From assembly GCA_024103135.1 (NCBI GenBank), contig JAGFIZ010000057.1, forward strand, positions 1 to 64,000: a stretch of 64,000 bases of DNA. The letters are read 5' to 3'. A program made the translations under genes and the position numbers. Source of the stretch: Bradyrhizobiaceae bacterium. GTDB taxonomy: Bacteria; Bacteroidota; Ignavibacteria; Kapaibacteriales; Kapaibacteriaceae. Shown one piece after another: positions 9,872 to 30,014 of the stretch (positions within the stretch are counted from its first letter, which is position 1; the number at the start of each line of letters is the position of its first letter). The notes below the pieces were generated by a model that worked only from the letters and a program-made list of their open reading frames with translations, did no database searches and was not told the origin of the DNA.

Positions 9872-9874
9872 CAG

Positions 9875-11998: not shown

Positions 11999-12005
11999 GC
12001 ATCCC

Positions 12006-13286
12006 GTGTTCAAAGTACTCATCCCTTGCTTTCTCGTCCTCGCTACCTGCACGCTTACAGCACAGGATGCCATGGAGCGCATTGTTGCTGTTGTGGGTGA
12101 CGAGATCATCCTCAAGAGCGACGTGGATGGTCAGCTCGAGATGATGGCACAGCGCAACCCGGGGATGGACAAGAACAGTCCAACCGTACGGCAGTTTGTC
12201 CTGGACCAGCTCATCAACGAGCGCCTGGTGCTGGTAGCGGCACGTGAAGACACGACGGTTACTGTATCGGACGAAGAGATCTCGCAGCGCATGGAGCAGC
12301 AGATTGCCATGATGGTGCAGCAGTTCGGCTCAGAGGAGCGCATCGAGCAGCTCTACGGCATGAGCATGGACAGGGTCCGCCGAGAGTTTCGCGACGAGAT
12401 TCGCAAACAGCTCCTTGCGCAGAAGAAGCGACACAATCAGTTTGGCGATGTGAAAGCAACGCGGGTCGACGTTGAGCGATTCTACACCGAGTACAAGGAC
12501 TCCTTGCCGTTGATCCCCGAGCGTGTGGACCTCTATCACATCGTACGGCAGGTAAAGCCAAGCGATGCACAGCGGTTGGAAGCACTTGCACTAGCAAACA
12601 GCTTACGAGATTCCTTGCTCAATCATCATGCAGATTTTGCAGACCTTGCTCACCGATATAGTGCCGACCCCGGTAGTGCGTCACGCGGTGGTGAACTTGG
12701 TTCCGTTGGTAAGGGCAAGTTCGTTCCTGCCTTCGAGGCAGCGGCCTTTGCGCTCGAGCCAAACCAGATTTCCGAGCCAGTCGAAAGTCCGTTTGGCTTT
12801 CACATCATCCAGCTCATCAGCAAGACGGCCACCAGCATCAACACACGGCACATCCTGATCAAGGTCGGTTCAAGCAATGCCGACCAGGATTCAGCGCGAG
12901 CAGATCTTGCACGACTGCGCGACCGAGCACTTGCTGGCGAATCATTCGAAGACCTTGCACGACAGTATTCGGATGAACGCGAGACGCAAGGGTTTGGCGG
13001 TGCAATGGGCGAGATCGAAGTACAACGCCTTCCTCCTGACCTCAAGAAGCCCATCATGGATCTGAACGACGGTGGCATAACCGAACCACTTCCATACGTT
13101 ACCGATCCGACCAAGCCTGGGTATCACATCATCTATCGCAAGCGACTCATTCGCGAACACAAGCCAACGTTGGAGTTTGACTATAAGACTCTAGAGCAGA
13201 TGGCCGCCTTTGCTAAGCGCAACAAGTTGGAACAGAGTTGGATCGAGGAGCTACGTCGCACGAAGTTTTGGGAAGTGCGACAGTAA
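12006..13286 (+). CDS. SurA-like periplasmic chaperone/peptidyl-prolyl isomerase
   Basis: Assists folding of outer-membrane proteins in the periplasm. From the GTG at 12006 the protein starts with a signal peptide (FKVLIPCFLVLATCTLTAQ), then the SurA N-domain (IVAVVGDEIILKSDV, QFVLDQLINERLV), then two parvulin domains with ASRGGELGSVGKGKFVPAFE and INTRHILIKVGSS. About 427 residues, matching E. coli SurA. The frame is open further upstream, inside the previous gene, but that extension has no signal peptide logic. Second gene of a two-foldase unit, convergent with the outer-membrane gene that follows. Confidence 0.9.
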   Translation: MFKVLIPCFLVLATCTLTAQDAMERIVAVVGDEIILKSDVDGQLEMMAQRNPGMDKNSPTVRQFVLDQLINERLVLVAAREDTTVTVSDEEISQRMEQQIAMMVQQFGSEERIEQLYGMSMDRVRREFRDEIRKQLLAQKKRHNQFGDVKATRVDVERFYTEYKDSLPLIPERVDLYHIVRQVKPSDAQRLEALALANSLRDSLLNHHADFADLAHRYSADPGSASRGGELGSVGKGKFVPAFEAAAFALEPNQISEPVESPFGFHIIQLISKTATSINTRHILIKVGSSNADQDSARADLARLRDRALAGESFEDLARQYSDERETQGFGGAMGEIEVQRLPPDLKKPIMDLNDGGITEPLPYVTDPTKPGYHIIYRKRLIREHKPTLEFDYKTLEQMAAFAKRNKLEQSWIEELRRTKFWEVRQ

Positions 13287-13336: not shown

Positions 13337-15289
13337 TTACCAGATTTTGCCAATCGTGATCCGGAAGATGTTCTCCGAGTAACTCCCACCATAGAGCGGC
13401 GGGATACCCAGCTCCTTGAAGATGTTGTGTTCGGCCCGAATGTCGATGTCGGCATAGTCGCCGAGTCTTACCAAGGCACTCAGGAAATATCCGGCACGCG
13501 TTCCATTCACCTGGTCTAATGCCAGCGTTGATCCACCGTTCACACTAAGCCAGTCAAGTGCAGAATATGCGGCACCCACGTCAATCGTGTATGTGGTTGA
13601 CGAAGTCTGAGCAGCCGTTTGCTCAATAAAACCAACGCCTGCGTTGAGCGTCAGCGGGATTCGTAAGGACACCGATTGCATGAGGTTCACGGTTGTGACC
13701 GTGTAATCGTTCGCATGATGCTTGGTCTCGGCATCCTGTATGCTAAGCGTAAGGTTCGTGTTTGCACCCAGTCCGCTGATCCGATAGGCATAGCCGACTG
13801 CACCGGTGATAACGTCGATCTGATTCTTGTACTGGAGCAAGGTGTCTTGACTATCGCTCTGCTGCGTGTAGGGCGAGTAGCCGACGCGGAAATACGGCCA
13901 CCCACGAACGTTCAGTCCAAGCGAACCGCCGATACTGGACAGTGTACTTGTTGCACGTTTGATTGCAGCAAGGTTGTCTTGATCATGTCGGATGAACGCA
14001 CTCAACGCTAATTGTCGTTTCCATAAACGTTGATCGGCTCGGATATCGTAACGGATGTAGTCCTTACGCAGGTTAGGTACGCCAAGTGCGGAGTAACCAG
14101 CACCGATACGCCTACCCTTCGCACTAATTCGTGTATTCGTCTCACGCAGATTGATCGTCATGCTCCCAGTGGCAGCCCAGTCAAGGTAGGTGCTGGCCGA
14201 ACTATCCACCATGTTCAACAAGAATTCAGGAACGTCGGGAGTACCAAAGCGTGGAGCATTCTGATCGCCTTCCGTAATTGATCCATTCAACTCGCCCTCT
14301 ACACTCCAAACGCCGGGCAATAGGTCAAGACGAAGACTAACACCCGTAATGTAGTTACGCTGTGGCGTCAAGGCAACGCCACTATCTGGCAAGGCCAAGC
14401 TCTGTGCATCATCATAGGCATACATGCCTGTGAATATCACGTGTGTTCCCTGTGGCTTACCATAGCCGATGCGTCCGCCATAAAGCGTCCGCCCGAAATC
14501 ACTGTTATCAAGTGTGGTATACACCGTCGTGTCGACCCGCATGCTATCAACGCGCTGCAACGGTCTTTGTGTGGTCCCACCTACACCAGCTATGTAGAAC
14601 ACACTACCCGGATTCCAGTCACCCCAGCCCCCTGACACCCTTGCGCCCGACAGTGTCAGTGGCGAGAACGTCGGGAACACCGTTCCCACGCCGATGGTCG
14701 GGAGTTGCTGCATGACGTTCTCCACGTCCGTCATCAAACCCATTTGCTGCAGGATGCCCGTGTAGTTTGTCACATCACCATTGGCCAGCTCTCGCATTTC
14801 CTGCAGTTGTTTGTATTGCTCCAACTCCTTCAATCGTTCAGGATCGTACTGGGCTAGTGAATCCTTGACAGCATTGTAGTTGTTGAGCAAGTCGCCCGCT
14901 TCACTCTGGATGTACGACTCAAGTGCCCGTGATGCCCGCTGTGAAACAATACGTTTGATAGCCTCTGGATCGAGGGTAACAGAGAAGGCATTGATTTGCT
15001 GACGGACGTCGCGTTGCTCGGAGCTCACCAGCAAGTTGGCCGTTATAGGCAAACCATAGATTGCCAGCGTAGGATTGATTTCCGCACGCCAGAGATCTGG
15101 CGGCTTCTCCTGGAAGCTGCCTTGCCGAGTCGAGGCCTGACCCAGGATGCGGTAGTTGCCAGTTACCCATACGGGTGCGGCTCCCGCCTCCGTTCCGAAT
15201 GAAATCCACTGAGCCCGAAGACCTAGTGACGACACCATGGTGGCTACCACCACCATTGCGTGCATGGAAAAGCGTGTGCTAGGTTTCAC
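13337..15289 (-). CDS. Putative outer-membrane beta-barrel protein, family not recognised
   Basis: A 650-residue exported protein: N-terminal signal peptide (VVVATMVSSLGLRAQ), a beta-rich segment ending in YGLPITANLLVSSE, then a charged helical stretch around residues 110-170 (YDPERLKELEQYKQLQEM), then about 460 residues of alternating hydrophobic and polar strands with short turns. It ends in a C-terminal aromatic residue (ITIGKIW), as many outer-membrane barrels do. I infer an outer-membrane barrel with a periplasmic helical plug or stalk. It starts 16 bases after the RCC1 gene stop, so both come from the divergent promoter region at 18.2 kb. No named family is recognised. Confidence 0.7.
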   Translation of the reverse strand: MKPSTRFSMHAMVVVATMVSSLGLRAQWISFGTEAGAAPVWVTGNYRILGQASTRQGSFQEKPPDLWRAEINPTLAIYGLPITANLLVSSEQRDVRQQINAFSVTLDPEAIKRIVSQRASRALESYIQSEAGDLLNNYNAVKDSLAQYDPERLKELEQYKQLQEMRELANGDVTNYTGILQQMGLMTDVENVMQQLPTIGVGTVFPTFSPLTLSGARVSGGWGDWNPGSVFYIAGVGGTTQRPLQRVDSMRVDTTVYTTLDNSDFGRTLYGGRIGYGKPQGTHVIFTGMYAYDDAQSLALPDSGVALTPQRNYITGVSLRLDLLPGVWSVEGELNGSITEGDQNAPRFGTPDVPEFLLNMVDSSASTYLDWAATGSMTINLRETNTRISAKGRRIGAGYSALGVPNLRKDYIRYDIRADQRLWKRQLALSAFIRHDQDNLAAIKRATSTLSSIGGSLGLNVRGWPYFRVGYSPYTQQSDSQDTLLQYKNQIDVITGAVGYAYRISGLGANTNLTLSIQDAETKHHANDYTVTTVNLMQSVSLRIPLTLNAGVGFIEQTAAQTSSTTYTIDVGAAYSALDWLSVNGGSTLALDQVNGTRAGYFLSALVRLGDYADIDIRAEHNIFKELGIPPLYGGSYSENIFRITIGKIW

Positions 15290-15305
15290 GTGGTGATGTC
15301 AGCAA

Positions 15306-18140
15306 TTATTTGGTAGCCAGACGTTCAACCCGTAGCGGACCAAGAGGTGGGTTTAGCGGTACTGGCGTCAGATTGGTTATTGGCCCTTCTCCAAGTTGTC
15401 CATCTGCATTCGTGCCCCACGTCCACAGTCCACCGTCCGTTCTCACAGCCATGGCATGCGCACCACCGGCAACGATACCGGTTACGGCATCAAGTCGGGA
15501 CACCTGTACCGGAACATCAGAGCCGACGCGGGTTCCGTTGCCTAGCTGACCAAGCACGTTGTTGCCCCACGCCCATACATGTCCGGTGCTGTCGAGTGCC
15601 AGCGAGAAGCCATCTCCTGCAGCAATTGCTCTGATCTTGGGCAAGCCATCGACTTTCTTTGCCTTCCATCTATCCGTGAACGTTCCGTCACCTAACTGTC
15701 CACTAGCATTTCCACCCCATGCCCACACCGTGCCACCTGCGTCGAGAGCCATGCTGTGGTCAAACCCTGCGGACACCGAATAGATTGGCACACCGTTGCC
15801 AACCTTTAGCGACTGTATCGATACCGTGAATTGTTCTGATGTATCCCGACCAGTCTGACCATGCGAATTCGAACCCCATGCCCAGACCGTGCCACGTGAC
15901 GTTGCTACGAGACCGTGGGCTTCACCTGCTGCGACATCCACAACATTCACAACCTTGCTTTGGAGATAGGGTTGCTTAAAGAAGACGGTACTGTCTACCT
16001 GTCCTGTAGTGCCGTTGATCCAATCATTAAAGCCGGACCCACAAGCATACGTCCGATTCCATCCCCACGTGTAGAGCTTGCCTTCAGTCGTTGATGCAAC
16101 GGAGTGATAGGCCCCATTGGCGACCTTGGCGACCTTGGTAATGCCAGGCACAACAGTTGGCGTACTACGGCGTGACCGATCACCAACACCTAGCTGGGCA
16201 TACTCATTGTCGCCCCAGCCCTTGAGCGTACCATCCTTTTCGACGCCAAAGCTATTCCACACACCAGCGTCCAACGCCGTCACGTGCTGAATTCCCTTGA
16301 CCTTTGCTGGTTCTTTTACAACCCATGGCAGACTCGGTCCGACCGCTCCCTTGGTATTGTTGCCCCAGCCCCACACCTGATTCTTCACGATCAGCGCGGC
16401 AAGCACGGACAGCGAAAGTTTGCTGCTGATGCCTTCCGTAAAAACCAGGTTTTTAAAGTCTGACATGGATTCCTGATTGCCTGCTGCTTGTTCATTACCG
16501 CCACCGCCGCCACCACCCTGGATGTTGGTTTCCGTCCCAATGTTGGTGAGCATGGTGTACAGCGAACCTTTGAATGACTGACTGGTTTCGTTCACGACCG
16601 TTGGAACTTCGACGGACATTCGACCACGCTGCATGTCGGACACGCTGGCCGTAAGATCCTTCCACAACTTTGGATTTGGCTTGTCTTCCGGCGTTGCCAC
16701 CAAGGAGTGTGCCTCGCCTGCAGCCATGACAAGAACAGGGTACTTGACCGTATCAACCTTCTCCTTGTCGATGAACTTGAAATCGTCAACACTTACATAG
16801 CCCGACTTCGAGCTGTCGATCACGTAGATCCGCGCCTTCCTGTTCAGATACTTCAGCATGTTCCATTCGATTGGCGAGAGTCTGTCTGCACTTGCAGCAT
16901 CCTTCAGGTTGGTCGAGGATAAGATGTACCATGGACGTGGCGTGCCAGCTAACGATCTGGTTGGCATGCTAAAGGTATCAGCAGCCGTCTGCTCCATGAG
17001 TAGCTCTACCCGACACTGGTCGTCTGGCCTCCCGCCAAACAGGAATTGCAGCGTCGAGTTCTGGATAGTAAACTCTTGACTGAGCAACGTCCCTTGTGCT
17101 CGTTCTGCATTAATGGGACCGTATGATGACGTCCAGTATTTACCTTGTTGGCCAACCGGACCGAGTACTGGATGTACGTCCAGCACGGGGTCGTCTATGT
17201 ATGCCTCTCCCAAAGGCTCCCAACAGGCAAGCGAGCCAATCTCGAAGTCCCAATTTTCGCCCGGACATTCACCCTCTGGTTTCGCCGGCGCACTCGTGAG
17301 ATCGTCTCTCCGATCGTTCCCGTCATCATTGACATTGTCCATTGGCTTCCACGTAAACCACCAGATTTCACTTTCACCGAGCGACACGACAACCTCACCG
17401 CGCTCTTCGTAGGCCTCGATCATCCAGGCATAGCGCTGTCCGGGTGTGAAGTTGCGTGATGAAATCGGATACATCAGCATCGTGCGTGTAAGGTTCCGTT
17501 GCTGGAACCACGCTGGATTGCGACGTATGGCATCGGCTGGAGTCTGCGTGCCGAACATTTCGGCAATCACGATACGATACTTAATGATCTGCCTAGGACC
17601 TGGAGGCACTGACGCCATCCACGAGAACACCGGATAACGGTCGGGCACATCACTCTCGTCAGGAGGTGCGATAAGTATCGGTACCGACATCCTGTTTACC
17701 GTCGTGAACTTACAGTCCTGTCCTATCACCTGTTGCGTTTCTGCATCAATCACTTCAACGCAGACCTTGTACTCTCCTGTCGGCACATTGCCCGTGCTTA
17801 GCAGAGCGTCCTTATACCGATCATTGCTTTGGTCGAGTTCAATGGGACTGATCTGTGCTGCTGAAATTCTGAATCCTCCTGGTGGACAATCAAACTCAGC
17901 CGAGTGTGCTTCGGCAATGATTCCATCAGGTACGCTCATCTCTTCGGCCGTTCCACGCAAGTACACGCGAACCTTCTGACCAGAGCGATTGTCAAGGTCA
18001 ATCTTCCAAAGATCAGCAACCTTCAACTGGTTGGGAGGGGGCTGTGTAAGGCGTACGTTAATGTTCACTGGTTGCGCCAGTGCGGAAGCGGAAATCCCTA
18101 TAGAAAGGACTAGGATGTGCAGAAGGCGAAGAAACTTCAT
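15306..18140 (-). CDS. Secreted multidomain protein with C-terminal RCC1 propeller
   Basis: About 944 residues from ATG 18140, preferred over a GTG at 18152 because TGAGG sits at a suitable distance upstream. Visible parts: signal peptide (LHILVLSIGISASALAQ); Ig/fibronectin-like beta domains to about residue 280; a beta-sandwich domain about 290-460; and seven RCC1 repeats, each with a W-G-x-N core (VWGWGNN, GWGDN, TWGWN, WAWGSN, WAWGGN, WAWGNN, TWGTN), about 587-930. The first blade seems split: an RCC1-like strand AAGEAHSLV near residue 475 is followed by a roughly 100-residue insertion with a seven-glycine run. RCC1 propellers usually bind proteins; the partner is unknown. Cotranscribed with the barrel gene. 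Confidence 0.8.
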   Translation of the reverse strand: MKFLRLLHILVLSIGISASALAQPVNINVRLTQPPPNQLKVADLWKIDLDNRSGQKVRVYLRGTAEEMSVPDGIIAEAHSAEFDCPPGGFRISAAQISPIELDQSNDRYKDALLSTGNVPTGEYKVCVEVIDAETQQVIGQDCKFTTVNRMSVPILIAPPDESDVPDRYPVFSWMASVPPGPRQIIKYRIVIAEMFGTQTPADAIRRNPAWFQQRNLTRTMLMYPISSRNFTPGQRYAWMIEAYEERGEVVVSLGESEIWWFTWKPMDNVNDDGNDRRDDLTSAPAKPEGECPGENWDFEIGSLACWEPLGEAYIDDPVLDVHPVLGPVGQQGKYWTSSYGPINAERAQGTLLSQEFTIQNSTLQFLFGGRPDDQCRVELLMEQTAADTFSMPTRSLAGTPRPWYILSSTNLKDAASADRLSPIEWNMLKYLNRKARIYVIDSSKSGYVSVDDFKFIDKEKVDTVKYPVLVMAAGEAHSLVATPEDKPNPKLWKDLTASVSDMQRGRMSVEVPTVVNETSQSFKGSLYTMLTNIGTETNIQGGGGGGGNEQAAGNQESMSDFKNLVFTEGISSKLSLSVLAALIVKNQVWGWGNNTKGAVGPSLPWVVKEPAKVKGIQHVTALDAGVWNSFGVEKDGTLKGWGDNEYAQLGVGDRSRRSTPTVVPGITKVAKVANGAYHSVASTTEGKLYTWGWNRTYACGSGFNDWINGTTGQVDSTVFFKQPYLQSKVVNVVDVAAGEAHGLVATSRGTVWAWGSNSHGQTGRDTSEQFTVSIQSLKVGNGVPIYSVSAGFDHSMALDAGGTVWAWGGNASGQLGDGTFTDRWKAKKVDGLPKIRAIAAGDGFSLALDSTGHVWAWGNNVLGQLGNGTRVGSDVPVQVSRLDAVTGIVAGGAHAMAVRTDGGLWTWGTNADGQLGEGPITNLTPVPLNPPLGPLRVERLATK

Positions 18141-18165
18141 GCCCGACCTCACATGATGTTAATGG

Positions 18166-18195
18166 GCGAATCTACATTGAGTTTTGGAAAAACAA
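18166..18195 (-). promoter_or_regulatory. Candidate promoter, leftward arm of divergent locus
   Basis: Minus strand: TTG (18193-18195), an 18-base gap and TAGATTCG (18167-18174), the latter inside CTCAATGTAGATTCGC (18166-18181). That 16-mer is repeated exactly upstream of the rightward gene. It ends 25 bases before the ATG at 18140. TAGATTCG has one mismatch to TAnnTTTG. Confidence 0.55.
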
Positions 18196-18380
18196 GCATG
18201 GGTGTTGAACAACAGAACTCAAGCGAAGTGCTGATCAACTTGAAAGTCGCTCCCTATACCCAAATGCCACGAGCGGCGTCCACCATGACCAAACGCACTT
18301 GCAATTGGAACCTGACCCCGACTGGGTATGTCTGGCGAAGGTTTCAAGAAAAAGCACACCGGGTCGGCAGAAAAAAAATG

Positions 18381-18414
18381 TTGACACAAAGTACTTTTCT
18401 CAATGTAGATTCGC
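18381..18414 (+). promoter_or_regulatory. Candidate promoter, rightward arm of divergent locus
   Basis: TTGACA at 18381-18386, then TAGATTCG at 18406-18413 inside the same CTCAATGTAGATTCGC 16-mer (18399-18414) found on the other strand. It ends 27 bases before the start at 18442. The element is preceded by a run of eight A. The shared core at matched distance suggests that both arms answer to the same sigma factor or regulator. Confidence 0.55.
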
Positions 18415-18432
18415 TCGGAACCTCATCCTTTC

Positions 18433-18440
18433 GGAGGGAG
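18433..18440 (+). promoter_or_regulatory. Strong ribosome-binding site of the 1719-residue gene
   Basis: GGAGGGAG directly precedes the ATG at 18442, with about five bases from the GGAGG core to the start. It is one of the clearest Shine-Dalgarno sequences in the window, in contrast to several genes that have none, and it fixes this start. Confidence 0.7.
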
Positions 18441-18441
18441 C

Positions 18442-21400
18442 ATGAGACGTACTCTTAACGTTCGCGCAATTCGACGGACACATTCACAGCGTATTCCTGC
18501 AGATTCCATTCTGCCTTCGGACATCGCGCAGAAGCTCGATTCCTATACGCTTTCACGACGGCATGCCCTTGGCCTCGCCGGCACCTTGTCGCTTGCAGCA
18601 GCGCCCATTGCATCGGCCATGGAAGGTGTGTTTTCTTCAGCGTATCAGGTTGTGCGCCGAGGACAGCGCATAGCATTCCTTGTTGCAGGGATAGAACGCT
18701 GGACCATTGATCCACGATGGTTCGACGGGGATGCTTCGCTTGATGTAAGCGAAACCGAGGATGGGATGGTTCTCTCCTTGATCGGAGCATTCTATCCGGG
18801 GACGACGATCCCTGCCGACTTCAAGGCAACGATCAGCGCTGGCAACAAGCCACAGCTGGATCTAGTGCTGACGAAACTCAACGTGCATGCCAAAGCCCCC
18901 TTCATCCCATGGCTCATTGATAAGGCACGTACAAGCGGCTCGCTTGTCAAGGACCAGGAGTGGAATCTCGTCGATGGTTCATTGATCATTCCGAACGGTG
19001 CAGAAATCACCTTTAGGCCAACGTGGACGTTACGCGCTGATGGCGAGATCGACGCGTCCATGCAGGTAGCTGACGCCCTCCGCCAGCACCGATCAAACCG
19101 TGTCGACGTCCAACTCCCAGCCAGTACAGAACCGTCGTTGCTTGTACCAGCGTCAAAGCGCAGCACTTTGGTTCGCGTCCACCGTGGCAGCAACCCATGG
19201 ACCGTACCGCTTGAAAGCGCCGACACAGACAGCTGGCATGCCATTGCCGATGACGATGCATTCGACGTCGTTACCATCGAGTCGGCCACAGATGCACGGA
19301 TGGCATTGATCTATGAAGGGGCTAAGGACTCGCATGTTCGACTACTGCTCAATGATCATGAAGGTAGCGTAAACCTCCGTGACGTACGCCTTGGCGTTGC
19401 AACAACTCCACAAGGCGTCCACACGATCTTCTGGGCCCAATACAGTCAGCAACCCACTTGGTTTACCATCAACGGCGTCAGCCTCGAGCTAGGTCAGAAT
19501 ACCGCGGCACAGCCAGTTCGCATCGAGCGATTGGCTGGCCGACTCGTCTCCTGCTCCGTAACGCCAGGGTTGTTGCGGTATACCATTCCTATCGAGGGAG
19601 CGGTTACACAACCAACACGTCCATCCCTCCCCATCCATCTGGCCATGCTGCCGCTTGGCGCACCAGCTTCGGCCCTGCCAAAGTCCAATCGGTCGATGGC
19701 AGAGCTGCAACTGGGCGATTTGCCAACCAGCGTAAAGGCGGGCACCATCGTCAGCCAACAAAAGGCCAACATCAAGATTAACAAGACAACGAAGTCAGCC
19801 CGCGTATCACCTGGCGTGTGGCTTACCTTCCCACAGAACCCATCGGTGACGGTTATCCGTCCTGAAGACCTCCTGGTTCTCACCTTTGAGTTCGACGGAC
19901 TCACGATCAACAAGGCAGCGGGCTCGTTTGGCGGCAGTGGTAAACTCATCGTTCACTTCCAGCCACAGCACATCGCAGAGCGTGCATTCTTCTATGTGAA
20001 CGATCCGGACAAGCCACCGACCTCGTCGGGCGCCCCAAGTAGTGCGCCAAGCACATCCAGTGGCAATGAACCACGGCTGGAGCCACCGATCGACAGCGTC
20101 ATGGCTCACCCATCGCGTCTGGTATTCCAGACGCCGAAGAACTATCAAGGGAATTACTCCATTGAAGGTCTGCTTGAGTGGAGCAAATTCACTCCAGTGG
20201 TCTCGCCTAGCGCCAAACCACCTGACGTTGCCTACGTGCTTGCAATCATGGCTACGGCCTTCGTTGGCAAGTACGTAGCAGGTGCAGCCATCAAAGGCGA
20301 GAGCGCCAGCGCCAACGTCAAGGCCAAGGATGGCAAGACAAAGGTCAGCGCCAAGGCCATGTCCAAGGTGGTAAATAAAACGGTCATGCCATCAGGTATG
20401 GCTTCGATGTTGGGTAACAACAACAGCTCGTTGAAGTTTGGCTACGAATCAACCCCAGATTACAACGTCAACTTCCCCTCCAGCTACGTTTCGGAATACG
20501 TTAAGGCTCTCATGGAAAAGCCTCCGATACGCATGCCGTACCCCAATGAGACCGTTATCGAGTACCCCTATCGATTGATGCTCTCACCCAACCGATTCTC
20601 AGGATGGGCACATAGCACAACGGCAAAGACGGATACCGATAGCGGACGCACTGAACTGTGGCACACACGTCTAGGCGTACGCCTGTCCGATGGCACGATT
20701 AACGAGCAAGCAGCCCACATGCGCACGGTTCGCGCTATCTGGAGTCCTGACGTTGGTACGGACTACTTGATGCCGGCCAAATACAAGGAACGTCCATTCC
20801 GCACATCCATCAACAGACGCGACAGACATGAGATTGTGCAGCTGACGAGTAACTACGACATGGCAACCAAGGATGCCCCGGTCAAGGTTGATCAGTTGAT
20901 GCTCACAAGCTTGGGTGCATGGGCCGACATGACCGGTGTGTGGGATCCACTTGCACAGGACAGTCTCGACGTCGAACAATGGATTCAGCGCGGCACTCAA
21001 GGGCGCGACCACTTTGTCCGCGTCTGCTACAAAGGCTTCCTCTTCCCCTTCGGACATCGTGCTACGCTTGTGAAGGAAACGGAACGCAAGTTCCGACGCA
21101 CACCTCGTGGCGACATGGCTGCCTATTTGATGCAGCGCCTGTACATCATCCTACGTCAGCCCGTTCGTGACTACCCTGCCGACGGTCTGCAAGGCATGGA
21201 ATACCAAGGTCGTGCAATTCCGTTCCGACGCGTTACCATTACTACGAAAACAACGCCGAACCTCAAGCTACCCATCGCCCTTAGCGGCATGAGCAGCAAC
21301 AGCTTCTGGCCAATGTACGTGCTTAATGGTTCCGATCTTGATGTACAATGGACCTGTATCGGCAGAGACTGGGACGATCATGACGTTCACTTCTCCGTAC

Positions 21401-23601
21401 CTCTGGCCTTTATCGCCAATACCGATGCCGGCACCGGTAACTGTGCAAACTGGATCAAGAACAACTACAAGAACGAAAACAGTCGTCGTGCAATCGAGAT
21501 GAACGGCCAGTCCATCGCCTTTGCACCGTCGACGAAGAAGGGCGACACGTCCTTCCCCACAAGCAAGTTCAATCTGTTTGGCTATTACTCCGACGGCGTA
21601 CCAGCCAATACACCGCGCTTCTTCCCCAGCATGGAAAAGGCCACGGTACAGATCGACAAGGTCAACGAACTGCTTGGAACAAATTCACCACGCGAGGTAG
21701 AATACTTCCTGTCCTATCTCAAGTTCGCTTTTGAGAGTGGCACTCCGCCAAGTAAAGGCGCTGCCACGATCAACATGAACTCGGTGAAGAATACTTCGCA
21801 GATCTTCCTTTCGCTCTTGTCGCCATTGACCATGGACTTCAACAGTCAGAGCGACAAGGCAGGGGGCTTGGCAGCACCAACCATCGGTATCGGCGCATTG
21901 TCGCGCCTGATGGGACCGATTCCAGGTGACTTCAACATTGCCGCAGGCTTGCCGGACGAAGCAGCCAAGCTAGCTGCCATGGCCGACAAGGTCAAGAATG
22001 CCGTTGTTGCTGCAGGCAACTTCGATCCAATGCAGTACTTCGAGGATTTGTTGAAGTCAAAGATCCTGGGTGACATCACCCTACAGGATGTGCTTGACTT
22101 CGTGCAGAATGTGTTGAGTAACGTCGACAAGATGCCTGGCTTGAATAAGCAGGATGACTTTGGCGTTAGCGACAAGTCCAAGGAAGGTGCAAGCAAGACA
22201 GACCTCGACGCTTTGTTGTCGGAGAAGCTCGAAGAAATCAAGAAGGTCAAGGAAGCTGCAGAGCAAGTAACCGGCGCCGTAAACGCCGAAGTACAGGCAG
22301 CCCGCGATCAATTGCTCGGCATCATCAATGATGTCAAGAGCGACATCGAGGAAGCCAAAACCAAGATCATGGCCGAGGTGGAAAGTGCCAAGCGCATGGT
22401 CGAGAATCAGCTTCGTGAGTGGAAGAAGAAGGTCGAAGATGCTGCCAGCGAACTCAAGAGCGAACTTGAGAAGGCACTTAAACCGCTCAAGGAAGCAGGA
22501 AACGAGGCCTACAAGCTCTACGAGCAAGCGTCCGATGCTATGGACCTTCTCAAGAAAGGACTCAACCTCTCCTTCGATTGGTCCACAACGATCAAGAGCA
22601 CGCCTGGCGACATCCTCACTCCTCTATATCCTGGTGAAACAGAGAAAGACAAACTGGCAACCCTCTACCTGAAGGCAGAGATATCGAAGAAACTGGATCT
22701 CAAGCCACCCGAGGTGACGTTGTATGGCTCGCTGAGCAACTTCGTCCTCAACCTCATCGGTGTAGGTGCTGCGCAGTTCCTGATCATCAAGTTCAACCGA
22801 CTGGCTGTTTCGGCAAAGGTTGGCGAGAAGCCCAATGTTGACCCGGATATCGAGGCCGTTGAATTTGCTGGTCCGCTCACGTTCGTTAACAAGCTCAAGG
22901 ATCTCATCCCATCTGGTGGTTCCGGCGGCGGCGTTGGCTTCTCGTTCAACTTCGACGTTCAACCCAAGGGTATTACGGTTCAGCTAACCATTACGCTACC
23001 TAACGTAACCGTTGGTGTATTCTCCCTGCAGAACCTAAGCTTCCTGCTTAAGCTCACCATTCCATTCGATGGAAGACCCGTATCAATCTTCTTTGGCTTC
23101 TGTTCACGCGAGAGCCCATTCCGCCTTACCATCATGGTCTTCGGCGGTGGTGGATTCTTCGGAATCGAGATCACGCCTAAGGGTGTTCGGATGCTTGAAG
23201 CCGCCTTCGAGTTTGGCGGAAACTTCGCCTTTGATTGCGGCGTTGCATCAGGTGGTGCCAGCGTGATGGCAGGCATCTACTACAAGCTTGAGGTAAAGGA
23301 GATCGACGGCAAGGATGTCGAGCAAAGTCAGCTCGAAGGATACTTCCGTCTAACAGGCAACTTGAGTGTGCTGGGTATCATCCGCGTGTCACTGCTGTTC
23401 GAGCTAAAACTCACATGGCAGGGCAACGGCAAGGTCTTCGGTACTGCGACGATCGAGGTTACCATTGAAATCTTGTTCATCAGCTTCTCTGTTGGTGTGA
23501 CAGTCGAGAAACAGCTCAAGGGCGAACCGGGCGACCCAACGTTTGCCGACATGCTTCCACAACCTTCCATGTGGGAAGAATACTGTAACGCTTTTGCTTG
23601 A
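18442..23601 (+). CDS. Giant Tat-exported protein of unknown function (1719 residues)
   Basis: No named family is recognised. The N-terminus has a twin-arginine motif (LSRRHALG, residues 37-44) followed by a hydrophobic stretch ending APIASA, so export in folded form by Tat is likely. Then comes a long beta-rich region, a Ser/Pro linker near 522-550, a conserved-looking core with RTELWHTRLGVR (about 738) and FPFGHRATLVKETERKF (about 868-885), a long charged helical segment about 1254-1377 (EEIKKVKEAAEQ), and a glycine-rich beta region about 1487-1693 with FGGGGFFGIEI. It ends WEEYCNAFA. The start is fixed by a strong ribosome-binding site. The next gene follows after 11 bases, so the two probably act together. 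Confidence 0.75.
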   Translation: MRRTLNVRAIRRTHSQRIPADSILPSDIAQKLDSYTLSRRHALGLAGTLSLAAAPIASAMEGVFSSAYQVVRRGQRIAFLVAGIERWTIDPRWFDGDASLDVSETEDGMVLSLIGAFYPGTTIPADFKATISAGNKPQLDLVLTKLNVHAKAPFIPWLIDKARTSGSLVKDQEWNLVDGSLIIPNGAEITFRPTWTLRADGEIDASMQVADALRQHRSNRVDVQLPASTEPSLLVPASKRSTLVRVHRGSNPWTVPLESADTDSWHAIADDDAFDVVTIESATDARMALIYEGAKDSHVRLLLNDHEGSVNLRDVRLGVATTPQGVHTIFWAQYSQQPTWFTINGVSLELGQNTAAQPVRIERLAGRLVSCSVTPGLLRYTIPIEGAVTQPTRPSLPIHLAMLPLGAPASALPKSNRSMAELQLGDLPTSVKAGTIVSQQKANIKINKTTKSARVSPGVWLTFPQNPSVTVIRPEDLLVLTFEFDGLTINKAAGSFGGSGKLIVHFQPQHIAERAFFYVNDPDKPPTSSGAPSSAPSTSSGNEPRLEPPIDSVMAHPSRLVFQTPKNYQGNYSIEGLLEWSKFTPVVSPSAKPPDVAYVLAIMATAFVGKYVAGAAIKGESASANVKAKDGKTKVSAKAMSKVVNKTVMPSGMASMLGNNNSSLKFGYESTPDYNVNFPSSYVSEYVKALMEKPPIRMPYPNETVIEYPYRLMLSPNRFSGWAHSTTAKTDTDSGRTELWHTRLGVRLSDGTINEQAAHMRTVRAIWSPDVGTDYLMPAKYKERPFRTSINRRDRHEIVQLTSNYDMATKDAPVKVDQLMLTSLGAWADMTGVWDPLAQDSLDVEQWIQRGTQGRDHFVRVCYKGFLFPFGHRATLVKETERKFRRTPRGDMAAYLMQRLYIILRQPVRDYPADGLQGMEYQGRAIPFRRVTITTKTTPNLKLPIALSGMSSNSFWPMYVLNGSDLDVQWTCIGRDWDDHDVHFSVPLAFIANTDAGTGNCANWIKNNYKNENSRRAIEMNGQSIAFAPSTKKGDTSFPTSKFNLFGYYSDGVPANTPRFFPSMEKATVQIDKVNELLGTNSPREVEYFLSYLKFAFESGTPPSKGAATINMNSVKNTSQIFLSLLSPLTMDFNSQSDKAGGLAAPTIGIGALSRLMGPIPGDFNIAAGLPDEAAKLAAMADKVKNAVVAAGNFDPMQYFEDLLKSKILGDITLQDVLDFVQNVLSNVDKMPGLNKQDDFGVSDKSKEGASKTDLDALLSEKLEEIKKVKEAAEQVTGAVNAEVQAARDQLLGIINDVKSDIEEAKTKIMAEVESAKRMVENQLREWKKKVEDAASELKSELEKALKPLKEAGNEAYKLYEQASDAMDLLKKGLNLSFDWSTTIKSTPGDILTPLYPGETEKDKLATLYLKAEISKKLDLKPPEVTLYGSLSNFVLNLIGVGAAQFLIIKFNRLAVSAKVGEKPNVDPDIEAVEFAGPLTFVNKLKDLIPSGGSGGGVGFSFNFDVQPKGITVQLTITLPNVTVGVFSLQNLSFLLKLTIPFDGRPVSIFFGFCSRESPFRLTIMVFGGGGFFGIEITPKGVRMLEAAFEFGGNFAFDCGVASGGASVMAGIYYKLEVKEIDGKDVEQSQLEGYFRLTGNLSVLGIIRVSLLFELKLTWQGNGKVFGTATIEVTIEILFISFSVGVTVEKQLKGEPGDPTFADMLPQPSMWEEYCNAFA

Positions 23602-23612
23602 GAGGAACACCT

Positions 23613-26600
23613 ATGGCAACACAAGAAATTCAGTGGACAGCAGTACCGTACGATTACAGAAGAGAAAACGGCGAACAGATTTTCTCTATTGCCTTTTGCC
23701 TGACACCAAGACTCCAGGACGTTGACACGAATGACAATAGACTGTCGGAATACCCTGATTTCCTGGACTGGCCAGCAACGCTTCTCGGATGCAGTTTTAA
23801 GCTCAAGGTAAACAACCATGATGTCCAACTCATCCCGAGAGATGAACAGCCAGACTCGGATGTGTGGAAGGCTGTGTTCAAGAACACGACCTTGGTCCAC
23901 CCATTCGAATTCAAACCGTTTACCGACCACAAGATCCTCAGCTTCCCTCTAGCCGACGTTCACAAAACGGTCTCGGAAACCTTGGTGAAACTTGTGAAGG
24001 AGTATGACGGTGAGACCCCGAACATCCCACATGCAAAGCCAAGCGACTTCAATGCCAAGACGAACTACCAGCTTCCAAAGGTCTTCACCGTACTCGACGA
24101 CGTGCTTCCGATGGATGATGATGAGCTTCGCATGCGGTCGATGAAGCGTGCATGGGAAGTCCTTGGTCAGGCCAAGACGCGAGTCGATATGAGTGGCAAG
24201 AATGCCAGAAAAGCACCACGAGAAATCCGACGTGCACAGGTCGACGTGCCAAAGACGCCAGAGTCCATGCTTTTCAACATTGAATTTGGAAAAAGCAAGA
24301 AGCTCGCACCATTCTACATGGCAGAGTTGTACCACACCCCTCGCAACTACGCCGTGTCGTCAGTTATTGACGGTAAGGACGTTGCCCGCAGTAAGCGTGA
24401 GAAGGTCCCGGCTCCAACGTACGACTTCCACCAAGTGGTAAGCGTCCTGCGTGAATATCCACTCATGCAGCGTAAGATGGGCTTGATCCGTCATTTTGAT
24501 TTCAAGGTGGACTTCGACATGCCACCGATGGGTACGGTCCAGGCAGTAGTCGAAATGCCCTTTCCTCCACGGATTGCGACGCAGATCGTTACACCGACAA
24601 CGGCCTACCAGTTCTTGAAGTCAGGATCGGAAGATACGTGGCAATTCTTGCCCCGACCAGATTTGGACAGTGAGATCGTTGGAGCATTGCTGTGCTTGAA
24701 TGACGCATCACACTTTGCAGTCCAACAGGTCGACGTTGACGCCATGGCCATGAAGACGCTCACCTATACACGTGGGTTAAAGCATCGCTACTTGAAGACG
24801 ATGGGCACGCCCGACATTAGTGCAAAGGTCGAAGCCCCGGCTGTTCGTGGTACGGGTCTGCAGCTTATCCGTGTGAATCGCGCCCTAAAGCTGGCCAAAA
24901 TGCTCATCCGAAGCAGTAACCACTGGAATAGGATGATCCTTGGACAAAGCGTCGATCTCTATGCCGACGATGTGATTCGCGGCTACCGCTTGGACGTGTA
25001 CGACGAAACTGCAGGCACATGGCAAAGCTTGATGCGCAGAAATGCAACCTACACCTTCCCTAATGCCGCTGAACCCTTGCGGAGCACCGGCATTTCGGCA
25101 ACGGATGAGGAAGGTGTCTTGTCGATTGCCGCATCACGTCCTGCCGGCAGCGATGAGACGCCAGGCATGAACCAACTCTATGCTCATGAAACCATTGCTC
25201 AGTGGGAAGGCTGGTCGATCGTTGTTCCGCTGATTGGCAATCATATCGATCCGAACGACGAGCTGGCACCAAGTCCACCAAAGCAAAGCCCTCCTCCAGG
25301 GTTCGATTATCAAGTCGAAAGTTCCGTGACAATCGTTCCTGGCTCGCTGCCCAGGCTTCGCTATGGCCGACGCTACCGATTCCGCGCTCGTACGGCGGAC
25401 ATCGCTGGTAATGGTCCACGATATGATCAGCTTAATCCGACTGACTTCTCCTGTGCCACTCCACTGGTGAAGTACATGCGGTGGGATCCGATTGCATCAC
25501 CAACGCTTGCACTCCGCAATCACCCAATCGAGGGCGAAAGCATGGAATGCATGGTCATCCGCAACTACAATGCAAGTGAGGACGATTCTGTCGAAGTCGA
25601 CACGACCGAAACTTGCGAACGACATCTCTTCCCACCGTTGATTGCACAGCAAGATGCCGAACGCCATGGCATGTTCGACCAGTCACCAACGGGTCCAATG
25701 CGCGGCGACTCGTCAACCTACAGCATGATCACTGGTAAGGAAGGCATCCTACCAAAGCGGTGGTACACCCGGAACGAATCAGGCAATCTTGTCCCCGAGG
25801 CAACAGACAATACTGAACCTTCAGATCCAAAGAAGGCAAAGAATGCCATTGCTTATCCGCTGATCCAGCAGGGTTCAACGGAGGTGCCTTACCTCCCCGA
25901 TCCGATGGCTCGGACGGTGACGCTTTACGACGTCCCAGGTGTGCCCGGTGGCAGTCACATGGAGGTGGACATCAGCGGCATCAACTTGGCAACAATATCC
26001 AGTCCATACGGTGTTGTTACCGTGCCCTTTGAAGACATGAACCAGTGGCCCAAGTTCAACTCGATCATGCTAAGGATGGCATCTGGAAAAACAAAGCCAG
26101 ATTGGAATCCCGCCGCGCGGACATTGACAGTGTTCCTTGAAAAGGGCGAACAGGCATGGATCAAGCTTAGCTCTGGTCTTGGCGCAACACAGACAGAAGG
26201 TGATGCGAACCTGGATCTTCATGGACACAAAGGCACCTTGATGGACAGTTCCTTGCCTGCAGGCAAGATTGCTGCTGCAGCAAGAGGTCTATCATGGCTG
26301 GTATCTCCTGCGCGGACGATACACCTGGTCCACGCAACACAGAAACCGCTAAAGAAGCCCAAGATCAACGCAGCCGAGGTTTCCTTCAGAGACTTTGGTG
26401 CCACCAATGCCGATATCAACATACCTGACACTACGGTGCATGCCCGTACCACGCAGAAGATCGACGTGTTCTCTAAGTGGGATATGTGGGTCGACAATCC
26501 ACAAAAGCCAGCACCGGAGCTTCAACATCAAAGTGCATACTTCTACGAGCAACATTGCGAAGACCGTACGAAGGACACACTATCAAACAGGAAGACCCAG

Positions 26601-27869
26601 GAGTTTGGCGATACGAAGTACCGCCTGATCACCTACGAACCACTCGCCACTACACGCTTCCGCGAAAACATGCCCCTTGCCCTCCGCAACGTTCCAGAGA
26701 ACCTTACGCGTTTGGGAGGTGGCAAGGAGGTTAGCGTACTCAGCAGCAAGCGTCCCGATGGCGTGAAACTTCTCTACGCCATTCCTTCCTTTAGGTGGTT
26801 GGAAGAAGAGAAGAAGCTTGACGGCAACATCGTGCGCAGCACACGCAAGGGCGGTGGCATCCGCATCTACATGGAACGTCCATGGTACAGTTCGGGCAAC
26901 GATGAGCTGCTAGGCGTTGTCTTGTACAGCAAGGAGAAGTTGACTCCTAAGAAAGACAATGACAGCTCTTACAAGGGATTCAAATCGCTTGACTTCAAGG
27001 GTGCAGGCTCGGAAATCAAGGATAAGTTCAGTGCTGCTGCCGCGATACTTGGGAACGCCAAGCTTGAGATACCAGAAGAGTTGCAACCCTACGTAACACA
27101 GTGGGGGCTTGACCCAATCTGGCTAAGCGCACCAACTCCATCGGACAACTCCCCACGCATTGGGAACTTCCGTGAACCAAAGCTCGTGCTTCAAAGCGTA
27201 AGTCTTGCCGAGGTTGCTCCTTCACAGCGGTTTACCGTCGTGGCCTACGAGCCGAAGTTCGACGAGGCCCGCAAGCTGTGGTATTGTGACATTGAGTTGG
27301 ATCCAGGAGCTTCGTACTACCCGTTCATTCGCTTGGCTCTTGCACGCGTACAACCACATTCACTCGAAGACCCTACAACAGGCAAGGATGTGTATTGCTC
27401 ACGCGTTTCCCAAAGCACGTTTTGTCAGCTTGCTCCTGATCGCGAAGCCGTTGCACGTATTGAGGACGATAGGCAAAGCGTGACGGTACAAGTCATCGGT
27501 CATACCTACCGCACGAACAGTGCTGGTCAAACAGGCAGCACCATCGAAGTGGCATTGGAGAAGCGCGACGTAGGTTCTGCAAGCACCGACCTTGGATGGA
27601 CACGCGTGTTAAGTCAGCGACTTGACCGGATCCATGCTGGAAATCTATGGGGTGGTTTGATCAAGCTTCCAACATCGGTCGACGCTGACACCTATCGCGT
27701 GGTGATCACCGAATTGGAGCAGTTCCTTACCGACCCAGAAAAGGCTTCAGAGCGTGTGGCCAACCTTGGGGCAAAGGACGTCAAGACCCTCAACGATGAG
27801 GCAGCCGGTGAGGTTACCCTTGACATTGGATATCGCGTTGTCTACGCCGACGTGCTACCGCTGAAATAA
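23613..27869 (+). CDS. Giant partner protein of unknown function (about 1418 residues)
   Basis: No named family is recognised. ATG 23613 is preferred over the in-frame TTG at 23598, since AGAGGA lies upstream of the ATG. No signal peptide or membrane segment is visible, so it is either cytoplasmic or exported with its Tat-carrying neighbour. Most of it looks beta-rich. Around residues 570-610 is a fibronectin-like strand pattern (LRYGRRYRFRARTADIAGNG). The N-terminus has SEYPDFLDWPATLLG, which appears to be a compact motif. Base and codon use look like the surrounding housekeeping genes, so recent transfer is not evident. Transcription ends at a strong terminator just downstream. Confidence 0.72.
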   Translation: MATQEIQWTAVPYDYRRENGEQIFSIAFCLTPRLQDVDTNDNRLSEYPDFLDWPATLLGCSFKLKVNNHDVQLIPRDEQPDSDVWKAVFKNTTLVHPFEFKPFTDHKILSFPLADVHKTVSETLVKLVKEYDGETPNIPHAKPSDFNAKTNYQLPKVFTVLDDVLPMDDDELRMRSMKRAWEVLGQAKTRVDMSGKNARKAPREIRRAQVDVPKTPESMLFNIEFGKSKKLAPFYMAELYHTPRNYAVSSVIDGKDVARSKREKVPAPTYDFHQVVSVLREYPLMQRKMGLIRHFDFKVDFDMPPMGTVQAVVEMPFPPRIATQIVTPTTAYQFLKSGSEDTWQFLPRPDLDSEIVGALLCLNDASHFAVQQVDVDAMAMKTLTYTRGLKHRYLKTMGTPDISAKVEAPAVRGTGLQLIRVNRALKLAKMLIRSSNHWNRMILGQSVDLYADDVIRGYRLDVYDETAGTWQSLMRRNATYTFPNAAEPLRSTGISATDEEGVLSIAASRPAGSDETPGMNQLYAHETIAQWEGWSIVVPLIGNHIDPNDELAPSPPKQSPPPGFDYQVESSVTIVPGSLPRLRYGRRYRFRARTADIAGNGPRYDQLNPTDFSCATPLVKYMRWDPIASPTLALRNHPIEGESMECMVIRNYNASEDDSVEVDTTETCERHLFPPLIAQQDAERHGMFDQSPTGPMRGDSSTYSMITGKEGILPKRWYTRNESGNLVPEATDNTEPSDPKKAKNAIAYPLIQQGSTEVPYLPDPMARTVTLYDVPGVPGGSHMEVDISGINLATISSPYGVVTVPFEDMNQWPKFNSIMLRMASGKTKPDWNPAARTLTVFLEKGEQAWIKLSSGLGATQTEGDANLDLHGHKGTLMDSSLPAGKIAAAARGLSWLVSPARTIHLVHATQKPLKKPKINAAEVSFRDFGATNADINIPDTTVHARTTQKIDVFSKWDMWVDNPQKPAPELQHQSAYFYEQHCEDRTKDTLSNRKTQEFGDTKYRLITYEPLATTRFRENMPLALRNVPENLTRLGGGKEVSVLSSKRPDGVKLLYAIPSFRWLEEEKKLDGNIVRSTRKGGGIRIYMERPWYSSGNDELLGVVLYSKEKLTPKKDNDSSYKGFKSLDFKGAGSEIKDKFSAAAAILGNAKLEIPEELQPYVTQWGLDPIWLSAPTPSDNSPRIGNFREPKLVLQSVSLAEVAPSQRFTVVAYEPKFDEARKLWYCDIELDPGASYYPFIRLALARVQPHSLEDPTTGKDVYCSRVSQSTFCQLAPDREAVARIEDDRQSVTVQVIGHTYRTNSAGQTGSTIEVALEKRDVGSASTDLGWTRVLSQRLDRIHAGNLWGGLIKLPTSVDADTYRVVITELEQFLTDPEKASERVANLGAKDVKTLNDEAAGEVTLDIGYRVVYADVLPLK

Positions 27870-28141: not shown

Positions 28142-29149
28142 ATGACCGTTCTACGATGGTTTGGCATTGCCGTGCTTGCAATGCTCTTGTTGGCGAACCT
28201 TGGGGGCTTGTTCTACCCAAGGCATGCTACCGTTGTTTGTACCATCTCGATCAACAAACCTGCAGCAACGATCTACCCCTACATTGCTAATCCGCGGCTT
28301 TGCCAGCTGTGGTCGCCCTGGCGCACGAAGGATACGACACTCGTGATCCACTACAGTGGACCCGATCAAGGGAAGGGGGCTGGTTATACGTGGAGTGGCA
28401 ATGCCGATGTTGGTAGTGGGTCGTGGGTGATCACAGGCACCACAGACAGGCGTGTGGACGCTGCTCTTTCCGTAGAAGGCATGGGCGCATCGACGGTGTG
28501 GATGACCGTAGATCAAAGGGGACAACACTCAGACGTTGTCTGGGCAATCTCGACCGATATGGGCTGGCTGCCGATGCTGCGATTGTTTACGCCACTGTTT
28601 ACATCGTATGTAACGACTGACTTCAATGCTGGACTTGCTAATCTCAAGTCGCTCATGGAATCACTACCGAACTCACGCACAGGCATGCCCGAGCTAGTGC
28701 AATTGCCTCCTACGCACGTCCTCTCCACTCGGGCAACCGTTAACACAACCGAAATCGGGAAGTCGTTGGCCACCATGTACGGCACGATCATGCACGAGGC
28801 ATTCAAGCAGCGCGCCGAGCTCAAGGGCAACATGCCCGTCATGGCCATCTACTACGGTCAACGTGATGGAGCAAGACAAACCGATCTCGAAGCAGCAATC
28901 ATTACCACAAAGCCCGCACACTCAACCAGCGGTGTTCATGCTCGCACCATCCCTGCAGGAGAGTTCGTGCGTGTGCCCTATTTCGGTCCGTACGAGAAGA
29001 CGTCCACCGCATACCATTCTGCACGTGAGTTTGCAAGACAGAGCGGACGTAGCCTGGACAGCGCCGCTATGGAATGGTACGTGACCGATCCACAGAGCGA
29101 ACCCGATACATCGCTGTGGCAAACCGATGTATACTTCCGTATCCGATAG
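28142..29149 (+). CDS. SRPBCC domain plus GyrI-like effector-binding protein
   Basis: A 335-residue protein with one N-terminal transmembrane segment (FGIAVLAMLLLANLGGLF). An SRPBCC/polyketide-cyclase-like domain follows, from about residue 30 to 170 (ANPRLCQLWSPW). The C-terminal part resembles the GyrI-like small-molecule-binding domain (GEFVRVPYFGPYEK). The combination is common in Bacteroidota and related bacteria; a ligand-binding or stress role is inferred and no enzyme activity is implied. The roughly 200 bases between the terminator and this start hold no obvious gene; a weak TAGCTTGG box at 28064 could be a promoter. Confidence 0.8.
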   Translation: MTVLRWFGIAVLAMLLLANLGGLFYPRHATVVCTISINKPAATIYPYIANPRLCQLWSPWRTKDTTLVIHYSGPDQGKGAGYTWSGNADVGSGSWVITGTTDRRVDAALSVEGMGASTVWMTVDQRGQHSDVVWAISTDMGWLPMLRLFTPLFTSYVTTDFNAGLANLKSLMESLPNSRTGMPELVQLPPTHVLSTRATVNTTEIGKSLATMYGTIMHEAFKQRAELKGNMPVMAIYYGQRDGARQTDLEAAIITTKPAHSTSGVHARTIPAGEFVRVPYFGPYEKTSTAYHSAREFARQSGRSLDSAAMEWYVTDPQSEPDTSLWQTDVYFRIR

Positions 29150-29173
29150 CCACGCACGGTGGTATTTTGCCAC

Positions 29174-29716: not shown

Positions 29717-29723
29717 CATCAGA

Positions 29724-30014
29724 GTGAAAGCAGACAAACTTCTGGAAGAGCTCACAGCACTTGCAACGAGCATTGGGTATACCGTGCGCCGTGAAAGCGG
29801 ATCGTTCAAGGGTGGTGCATGCGTAATGAAAGAGCAGCAACTGATCCTGGTCAACCGCTCGATCCCGCCTGAGGCCTCATGCGTGATGCTTGCCCGCGCC
29901 CTTGCACGCATTGGCGTGGAAGACTCCTATGCAAAGCCTGCTGTTCGCGACATCCTGGAGCGTGAACGAATCTGGGTGACGCAGCATCCTGAAGTAACCT
30001 TCGAAGCATCATGA
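29724..30014 (+). CDS. Small conserved protein preceding era
   Basis: A 96-residue protein starting with GTG at 29724, eight bases after the previous stop. It has no signal peptide or membrane helix. The pattern RRESGSFKGGACVMKEQQLILVNRS followed by a helix with LARALARIG resembles short uncharacterised proteins seen in several bacterial phyla. A Cys in GGACV is the only notable residue. Its stop overlaps the era start by four bases, so it is translated with Era. Confidence 0.7.
   Translation: MKADKLLEELTALATSIGYTVRRESGSFKGGACVMKEQQLILVNRSIPPEASCVMLARALARIGVEDSYAKPAVRDILERERIWVTQHPEVTFEAS

What the first reader, a model, noticed from the sequence alone, without database searches (positions are those of the whole stretch)
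13337..27869. Uncharacterised divergent four-gene envelope locus
Two leftward genes (exported RCC1-propeller protein, outer-membrane barrel) and two rightward genes (1719-residue Tat-exported protein and a 1418-residue partner) face away from one intergenic region, share a promoter-like element, and end at a convergent boundary on one side and a strong terminator on the other. Together they take up over 14 kb. The combination of a surface propeller, a barrel and two giant beta-rich proteins suggests a secreted or surface-displayed assembly of undescribed type.
Basis: inference. Interest (0 to 1): 0.72.

Follow-up and report, generated by a model that had tools for sequence, protein, structure and literature searches.

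The report
Unknown giant protein pair, outer-membrane partners
Two giant bacterial proteins of unknown families almost always occur side by side in at least five bacterial phyla, and in this organism they sit in a four-gene block that adds an export signal, an outer-membrane barrel and a propeller protein, so they look like an undescribed assembly that one lineage has moved to its cell envelope.

Summary
Four genes (13337-27869) diverge from one intergenic region. An exact 15-bp element, with only two copies in the 2.7-Mb genome, precedes each divergent start. The block ends at a convergent boundary and at a strong terminator. In the same family it is all-or-none at one site: six relatives without it have the flanking PpiC and era-side genes adjacent. 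In 60 relatives both giants (G1, G2) occur in the same 19 genomes, and all 19 also have the barrel and the propeller protein. The reading as one four-part assembly is only partly right. G1-G2 is a wider obligate bicistron, found without barrel or propeller in Acidobacteriota, Actinomycetota, Pseudomonadota, Chloroflexota and one family of this phylum. Barrel and propeller-protein N-terminus form their own unit: they are fused in one relative, have paralogous pairs, and lack the propeller in some loci. G1 and G2 match nothing in Pfam, NCBIfam, PHROGs, PADLOC or PDB sequences beyond a coiled coil. Models suggest tandem Ig/FN3-like domains (G2) and a porin-like amphipathic beta-meander (G1 C-terminus). 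Best reading: G1-G2 is one folded complex, here exported by Tat with G2 hitchhiking and held at the outer membrane by the barrel module. Contact, location and function are unproven.

The parts
13337..15289 (-). BAR: 650-aa exported protein, predicted outer-membrane beta-barrel with a helical N-terminal part; C-terminal Trp
   Evidence: ORF; hydrophobic N-terminus; W650 invariant in 19 homologues; weak porin-like Pfam hits in single members
15306..18152 (-). RCC: 948-aa exported protein (likely ATG start 18140): conserved N-terminal domain (about aa 1-275), family-specific middle, RCC1 propeller (about aa 590-935)
   Evidence: PF00415/PF25390; N-terminal domain is the only part kept in all homologues
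15348..16385 (-). RCC1 propeller region of RCC
18166..18180 (-). copy 1 of TCAATGTAGATTCGC, 25 nt before the RCC ATG
18400..18414 (+). copy 2 of TCAATGTAGATTCGC, 27 nt before the G1 ATG
18442..23601 (+). G1: 1719-aa protein of an undescribed family, Tat signal, mostly beta, coiled coil, C-terminal amphipathic beta-meander
18550..18621 (+). twin-arginine signal SRRHALGLAGTLSLAAAPIASA of G1
   Evidence: TatC in the genome
22159..22566 (+). coiled-coil / amphipathic helical segment of G1 (about aa 1240-1375), variable in length between homologues
22909..23541 (+). conserved C-terminal amphipathic beta-meander of G1 (about aa 1490-1700), porin-like in the model of homologue L168
23613..27869 (+). 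G2: 1418-aa protein of an undescribed family, no signal peptide, 11 nt after G1 behind AGAGGAA
25491..27710 (+). stretch of G2 (aa about 627-1366) corresponding to the tandem Ig/FN3-like domains in the model of homologue L090
27897..27929 (+). intrinsic terminator after G2
11892..13286 (+). left flank: SurA/PpiC-type foldase gene, directly joined to the era side in relatives lacking the block
28142..30913 (+). right flank: SRPBCC/GyrI-like gene, two small genes and era-like GTPase, kept in relatives lacking the block

Best explanation
G1 and G2 make up one obligate complex whose folded parts assemble in the cytoplasm. In this lineage G1 carries a twin-arginine signal, so the folded G1-G2 complex is exported by Tat, with signal-less G2 riding along. 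The two Sec-exported partners BAR and RCC form an outer-membrane unit (RCC N-terminal domain bound to the barrel) that holds the complex at, or passes it through, the outer membrane, where the Ig/FN3-like rod of G2 and the RCC1 propeller act as binding surfaces. Shown: the obligate adjacent pair, the conserved Tat motif, the lack of a signal on G2, the all-or-none block, and the BAR/RCC_N fusion in one relative. Inferred: physical contact of G1 with G2, hitchhiker export, docking to BAR/RCC, surface location, and a binding or adhesion role.
For: G1 and G2 occur in the same 19 of 60 relatives (Fisher p 5e-16) and in 9 of 10 genomes of other phyla that hold G2, the exception being a MAG with only a 3.6-kb contig. 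They are always in the order G1-G2, mostly 2-26 nt apart. Identities of G1 and G2 pairs correlate, r 0.96 overall and 0.74 among distant pairs. (S/T)RRxxL is kept in all G1s of the lineage whose N-terminus was read and TatC is present. G2 has no hydrophobic N-terminus and its conserved first strand begins at about residue 3, leaving no room for a signal. Co-export of signal-less subunits by Tat has a precedent in PaoABC (PMC4273604). The four genes form an all-or-none block at one site. RCC_N and BAR are fused in an 895-aa protein of G039, and G1-G2-BAR-RCC_N are colinear in two distant families of the phylum. The G2 model is Ig/FN3-like over 558-1200 of L090. The G1 C-terminal model resembles porin barrels, Z 13.9 over 190 residues at 3.9 A.
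Against: Many homologous pairs have no Tat motif (Actinomycetota, most Pseudomonadota, one family of the same phylum), so the core activity does not require export. Tat motifs also occur without a homologous barrel (Litorilinea, a Streptomyces plasmid, L168). In two order-level relatives BAR, or BAR and RCC, lie on contigs other than the giants. No complex prediction was possible. A folded complex of more than 300 kDa would be a very large Tat cargo. No direct evidence for location exists.
Confidence: 0.4

Rival explanations
1. G1-G2 works inside the cell or on the cytoplasmic or periplasmic face of the inner membrane in all taxa. Tat export and the BAR/RCC block are a lineage-specific reuse, and BAR/RCC is an independent surface system that only shares the promoter region.
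For: Pairs without any signal or barrel are widespread and form most of the tree's other branches. BAR/RCC_N-type pairs exist independently of the giants.
Against: Precise joint presence or absence of all four genes, the shared element, and colinear G1-G2-BAR-RCC_N in distant families.
Confidence: 0.25
2. G1-G2 is a secreted two-component effector (for example membrane-inserting) used against other cells, with BAR/RCC as its exit or immunity part.
For: Rare, patchy, partly plasmid-borne distribution; broken copies (L099); porin-like beta-meander at the G1 C-terminus; large size.
Against: No match to any toxin, tail or defence family beyond the coiled coil; no immunity-like gene kept next to the pair; many copies lack any export signal; no variable C-terminal domain - the G1 C-terminus is its most conserved part.
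Confidence: 0.12
3. G1-G2 binds lipid or another hydrophobic ligand: the amphipathic G1 sheet and helices line or coat a hydrophobic cargo that BAR/RCC hands to the outer membrane.
For: Highest beta-amphipathicity of all four proteins at G1 1401-1719; weak apolipoprotein A-type helix matches in 13 of 25 members; weak fold matches to apoB, MTP and TULIP-type proteins among the barrels.
Against: The helix matches are generic for coiled coils and far below the curated cut-off (22 against 90 bits); the fold matches to apoB/MTP have TM under 0.1.
Confidence: 0.1

Closest known systems
Tat hitchhiker complexes (for example PaoABC of E. coli, PMC4273604)
   Same: One subunit carries the Tat signal, the partner or partners have none and are encoded next to it
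   Different: G1 and G2 are unrelated in sequence to any cofactor enzyme, and far larger; co-export is inferred, not tested
RCC1/BLIP-II-type seven-bladed propellers (PF00415, PF25390)
   Same: RCC carries seven RCC1 repeat matches
   Different: Here the propeller is an optional C-terminal module behind an exported N-terminal domain; homologous loci L170 and L171 lack it
Outer-membrane beta-barrels with a dedicated surface partner
   Same: Signal peptide, C-terminal aromatic, partner domain encoded next to it or fused
   Different: No Pfam or NCBIfam family is reached; the barrel itself was not modelled
Type IX secretion cargo
   Same: Large exported multi-domain proteins of the same broad group of bacteria
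   Different: None of the four proteins has the Por_Secre_tail C-terminal domain

Membership tests
RCC1 propeller proteins | several RCC1 repeats over the curated cut-off | tested here: met
   7 stretches, E 2.9e-52, 175.5 bits against 21.7
Tat substrates (G1) | N-terminal (S/T)RRxxL followed by a hydrophobic stretch and small residues, with TatC in the genome | tested here: met
   SRRHALGLAGTLSLAAAPIASA at aa 38-59, motif kept in all lineage G1s read; TatC E 1.5e-63
Tat substrates (G1) | TatC-dependent export | not testable with these tools
   needs a cell experiment
Tat hitchhiker pair (G1-G2) | partner without its own signal | tested here: met
   no hydrophobic N-terminus; conserved strand from about residue 3
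Tat hitchhiker pair (G1-G2) | stable cytoplasmic complex exported together | not testable with these tools
   no complex prediction available
outer-membrane beta-barrel (BAR) | export signal and C-terminal aromatic residue | tested here: met
outer-membrane beta-barrel (BAR) | closed transmembrane barrel fold | tested here: inconclusive
   only weak, scattered sequence hits to porins or receptors; not modelled
outer-membrane beta-barrel (G1 C-terminus) | porin-like barrel inserted in the outer membrane | tested here: inconclusive
   model of L168 aligns with porins, Z 13.9, 190 aligned, 3.9 A, but pLDDT is 65-83 there, and homologues exist in Actinomycetota and without signals
Ig/FN3 multidomain proteins (G2) | tandem beta-sandwich domains | tested here: inconclusive
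   best Z 8.7, 15.1 A over 252 residues; single-domain rows 2.7-3.8 A over about 100 residues; no Pfam Ig or FN3 hit in 28 members
type IX secretion cargo | Por_Secre_tail domain | tested here: not met
   absent from all four proteins
phage tail or virion proteins | PHROG match outside coiled coils | tested here: not met
   G2 none; G1 only coiled-coil region, E 0.015 or worse; no relative in 50,697 phage records
anti-phage defence systems | PADLOC model match outside coiled coils | tested here: not met
   G2 none; G1 only coiled-coil region

The most novel reading that the evidence does not exclude
G1-G2 is a new kind of two-protein machine spread over at least five phyla, which acts as a cytoplasmic complex in most of them and in one lineage was converted into a cell-surface assembly by adding a Tat signal and an outer-membrane barrel/propeller unit.
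Probability: 0.3. Interest if true: 0.8.

Novelty: categorically new. Interest (0 to 1): 0.58.

Why it matters
Two protein families of about 1000-1700 residues, strongly conserved between phyla and always encoded as a pair, have no entry in the family libraries searched here. Such an obligate pair usually marks a physical complex with a defined job. The lineage seen here offers a natural experiment: the same pair with and without export signal and outer-membrane partners, which makes location and function directly testable. If the pair is exported together it would be an unusually large Tat cargo.

Tried and rejected
Pfam, NCBIfam, PHROGs, PADLOC and PDB-sequence searches with single proteins and profiles gave only coiled-coil matches for G1 and nothing for G2. 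DUF6603 as a possible relative of the G1 C-terminus was a guess from memory; Pfam does not report it and the library of papers does not mention it. A hydrophobic segment at G1 aa 599-617 was considered as a membrane anchor and dropped, since it is not kept in homologues. Apparent long ORFs of 3029 and 2029 aa carrying G2 in Actinomycetota (L162, L163) were considered as G1-G2 fusions and dropped: G1 is not in that frame. Recurrent neighbours of the pair outside the phylum were sought and not found. A conserved version of the shared 15-bp element in relatives was sought and not found. The PDB search with the middle region of RCC found nothing. Foldseek and VIA listed no informative whole-protein match for either model; that absence does not show that the folds are new.
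Full report
What is there. BAR (650 aa) and RCC (948 aa) run leftward, G1 (1719 aa) and G2 (1418 aa from the conserved ATG at 23613) run rightward. BAR and RCC have Sec-like hydrophobic N-termini, G1 has a twin-arginine signal, G2 has no signal. G2 starts 11 nt after the G1 stop behind AGAGGAA. The block ends 50 bp from a convergent PpiC-type foldase gene on the left and at a 13-bp perfect-stem terminator on the right. The shared promoter-like element is real and striking in this genome: TCAATGTAGATTCGC occurs twice in 2.71 Mb, 25 and 27 nt before the RCC and G1 ATGs. It is not seen in the relatives' intergenic regions, so it says something about this genome only.

The block is a unit in this lineage. 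In 60 relatives G1 and G2 occur in the same 19 genomes and in no others. All 19 also hold full-length relatives of BAR and of RCC; two further genomes have BAR without the giants (G021, G039). In six relatives of the same genus or family that lack the giants (G004, G006, G007, G012, G014, G015), the PpiC gene is directly joined to the genes on the era side, and none of the four genes is there. In G003 and G008 the block sits at the same place beside the same PpiC gene. So the four genes come and go together at one chromosomal site within the family. Beyond the family the order changes: in G034, G041 and G040 the order is G1-G2-RCC-BAR on one strand; in G157 and G294 it is G1-G2-BAR-RCC_N; in G031 BAR, and in G033 BAR and RCC, are on contigs other than the giants.

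The giants are an older, wider pair. The G2 protein finds relatives in Acidobacteriota, Actinomycetota, Pseudomonadota and Chloroflexota and in several large plasmids. In nearly every case G1 lies just upstream, mostly 2-26 nt away. The pair is rare: 18 of 395 genomes of the own phylum, 2 of 274 and 6 of 297 in samples around a Pelomonas and a Mycobacterium carrier. Neither barrel nor propeller relatives stand beside these pairs, and no recurrent neighbour was found. G1 in these taxa mostly lacks the first 460 residues and the Tat signal, but Tat motifs also occur in Litorilinea, in a Streptomyces plasmid, in a Pseudomonadota-derived genome (L168) and in a contig of IMG/VR (L126). On a G2 tree the block-bearing genomes of the order form one group; alpha- and betaproteobacterial chromosomes and plasmids intermix closely, which fits horizontal transfer; one family of the own phylum (f29, no signal, no barrel) groups with an acidobacterium rather than with the window's order (quick tree, long branches).

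The barrel and the RCC N-terminal domain are a second module. The only part of RCC kept in all relatives is its N-terminal 275 residues; the propeller is missing in L170 and L171. In G039 the RCC N-terminal domain and the barrel are one 895-aa protein, which is good evidence that they work together. Related pairs, a BAR-like protein next to a 1669-3264-aa protein starting with the RCC N-terminal domain, are found in G012, G014, G034 and G050. So the barrel unit looks like a general surface device of these bacteria, of which one copy was joined to G1-G2.

Families and folds. G1 and G2 match no model of Pfam or NCBIfam and no PDB sequence except through the G1 coiled coil; PHROGs and PADLOC likewise. 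Yet both are strongly conserved across phyla, with motifs such as TERKF and FGGGGFFGIE...LEAAFEFG...GVASGG...MAGIY in G1, and GSLPRLRFG..YR.RAR.VD.AGN, HEFGDTK, RPWYSSG.GELLGVVL and LWYCDIE.DPG.SY.PFVRLAL in G2. AlphaFold2 models were made of two compact homologues: G2 of an acidobacterium (L090, residues 1-1200 of 1225), mean pLDDT 85.3, pTM 0.68; and G1 of L168 (1191 aa), mean pLDDT 68.8, pTM 0.58. The G2 model has Ig/FN3-like domains from about residue 558 on (best Z 8.7, at the level the tool describes as common; single domains 2.7-3.8 A over about 100 residues). The G1 C-terminus is a meander of 10-18-residue strands that aligns with porins (CymA, OmpG; Z 13.9, 190 residues, 3.9 A) and is the most beta-amphipathic stretch of all four proteins.

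How it most likely works. Shown: obligate adjacent pair; conserved Tat signal on G1 in this order; no signal on G2; TatC present; all-or-none block; BAR-RCC_N fusion. Inferred from these: G1 and G2 assemble in the cytoplasm and cross the inner membrane together by Tat, as PaoABC does (PMC4273604); the BAR-RCC unit docks or passes them at the outer membrane; the beta-rich rods and the propeller present binding surfaces. I give this about 0.4. The main rival is that the pair's own work does not need the envelope partners, since most relatives lack both signal and barrel (0.25). A secreted membrane-inserting effector (0.12) and a lipid carrier (0.1) remain open.

Its anatomy was right, and the block is real. 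Its synthesis, a single four-part assembly, is half right: two modules of different age have been joined. Its refutation test (giants elsewhere without barrel and propeller) came out positive, while its other test (match to a known toxin, polysaccharide or tail system) came out negative. The label 'categorically new' rests on the failure of five libraries and of sequence profiles to reach G1 and G2.

Noticed in passing
L186:9123-11810: An 895-aa protein of an order-level relative fuses the RCC N-terminal domain to the BAR barrel, without G1/G2 nearby.
   Followed up: partly
L175, L176, L177, L178: A paralogous pair, BAR-like barrel next to a 1669-3264-aa protein that starts with the RCC N-terminal domain, in relatives without G1/G2; it looks like a general surface system of these bacteria.
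   Followed up: partly
L126:62-11411: Very divergent G1 (Tat signal, apparent frameshift near its end) followed by a 2407-aa G2-like protein and a further Tat-signal protein, on a contig filed as viral in IMG/VR.
   Followed up: partly
L125:1-12338: A G1-G2 pair on a contig that also carries a phage terminase large subunit and an HNH gene; possibly a prophage border or phage cargo.
   Followed up: partly
L099:6132-14157: G1 and G2 of Pseudoxanthomonas sp. NC8 are broken into several reading frames, as decayed copies would be.
   Followed up: no
L185:10748-17507: A family-level relative without G1/G2 keeps BAR and a shortened RCC without propeller, followed by another RCC_N-type protein of at least 1142 aa.
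   Followed up: no
L164 and L165: One actinobacterial genome (G890) holds two different G1-G2 pairs.
   Followed up: no
window 9845-13286: Two adjacent PpiC-type foldase genes; only the second was tested against Pfam. The four-gene block lies directly beside these periplasmic chaperones in all family members examined.
   Followed up: partly
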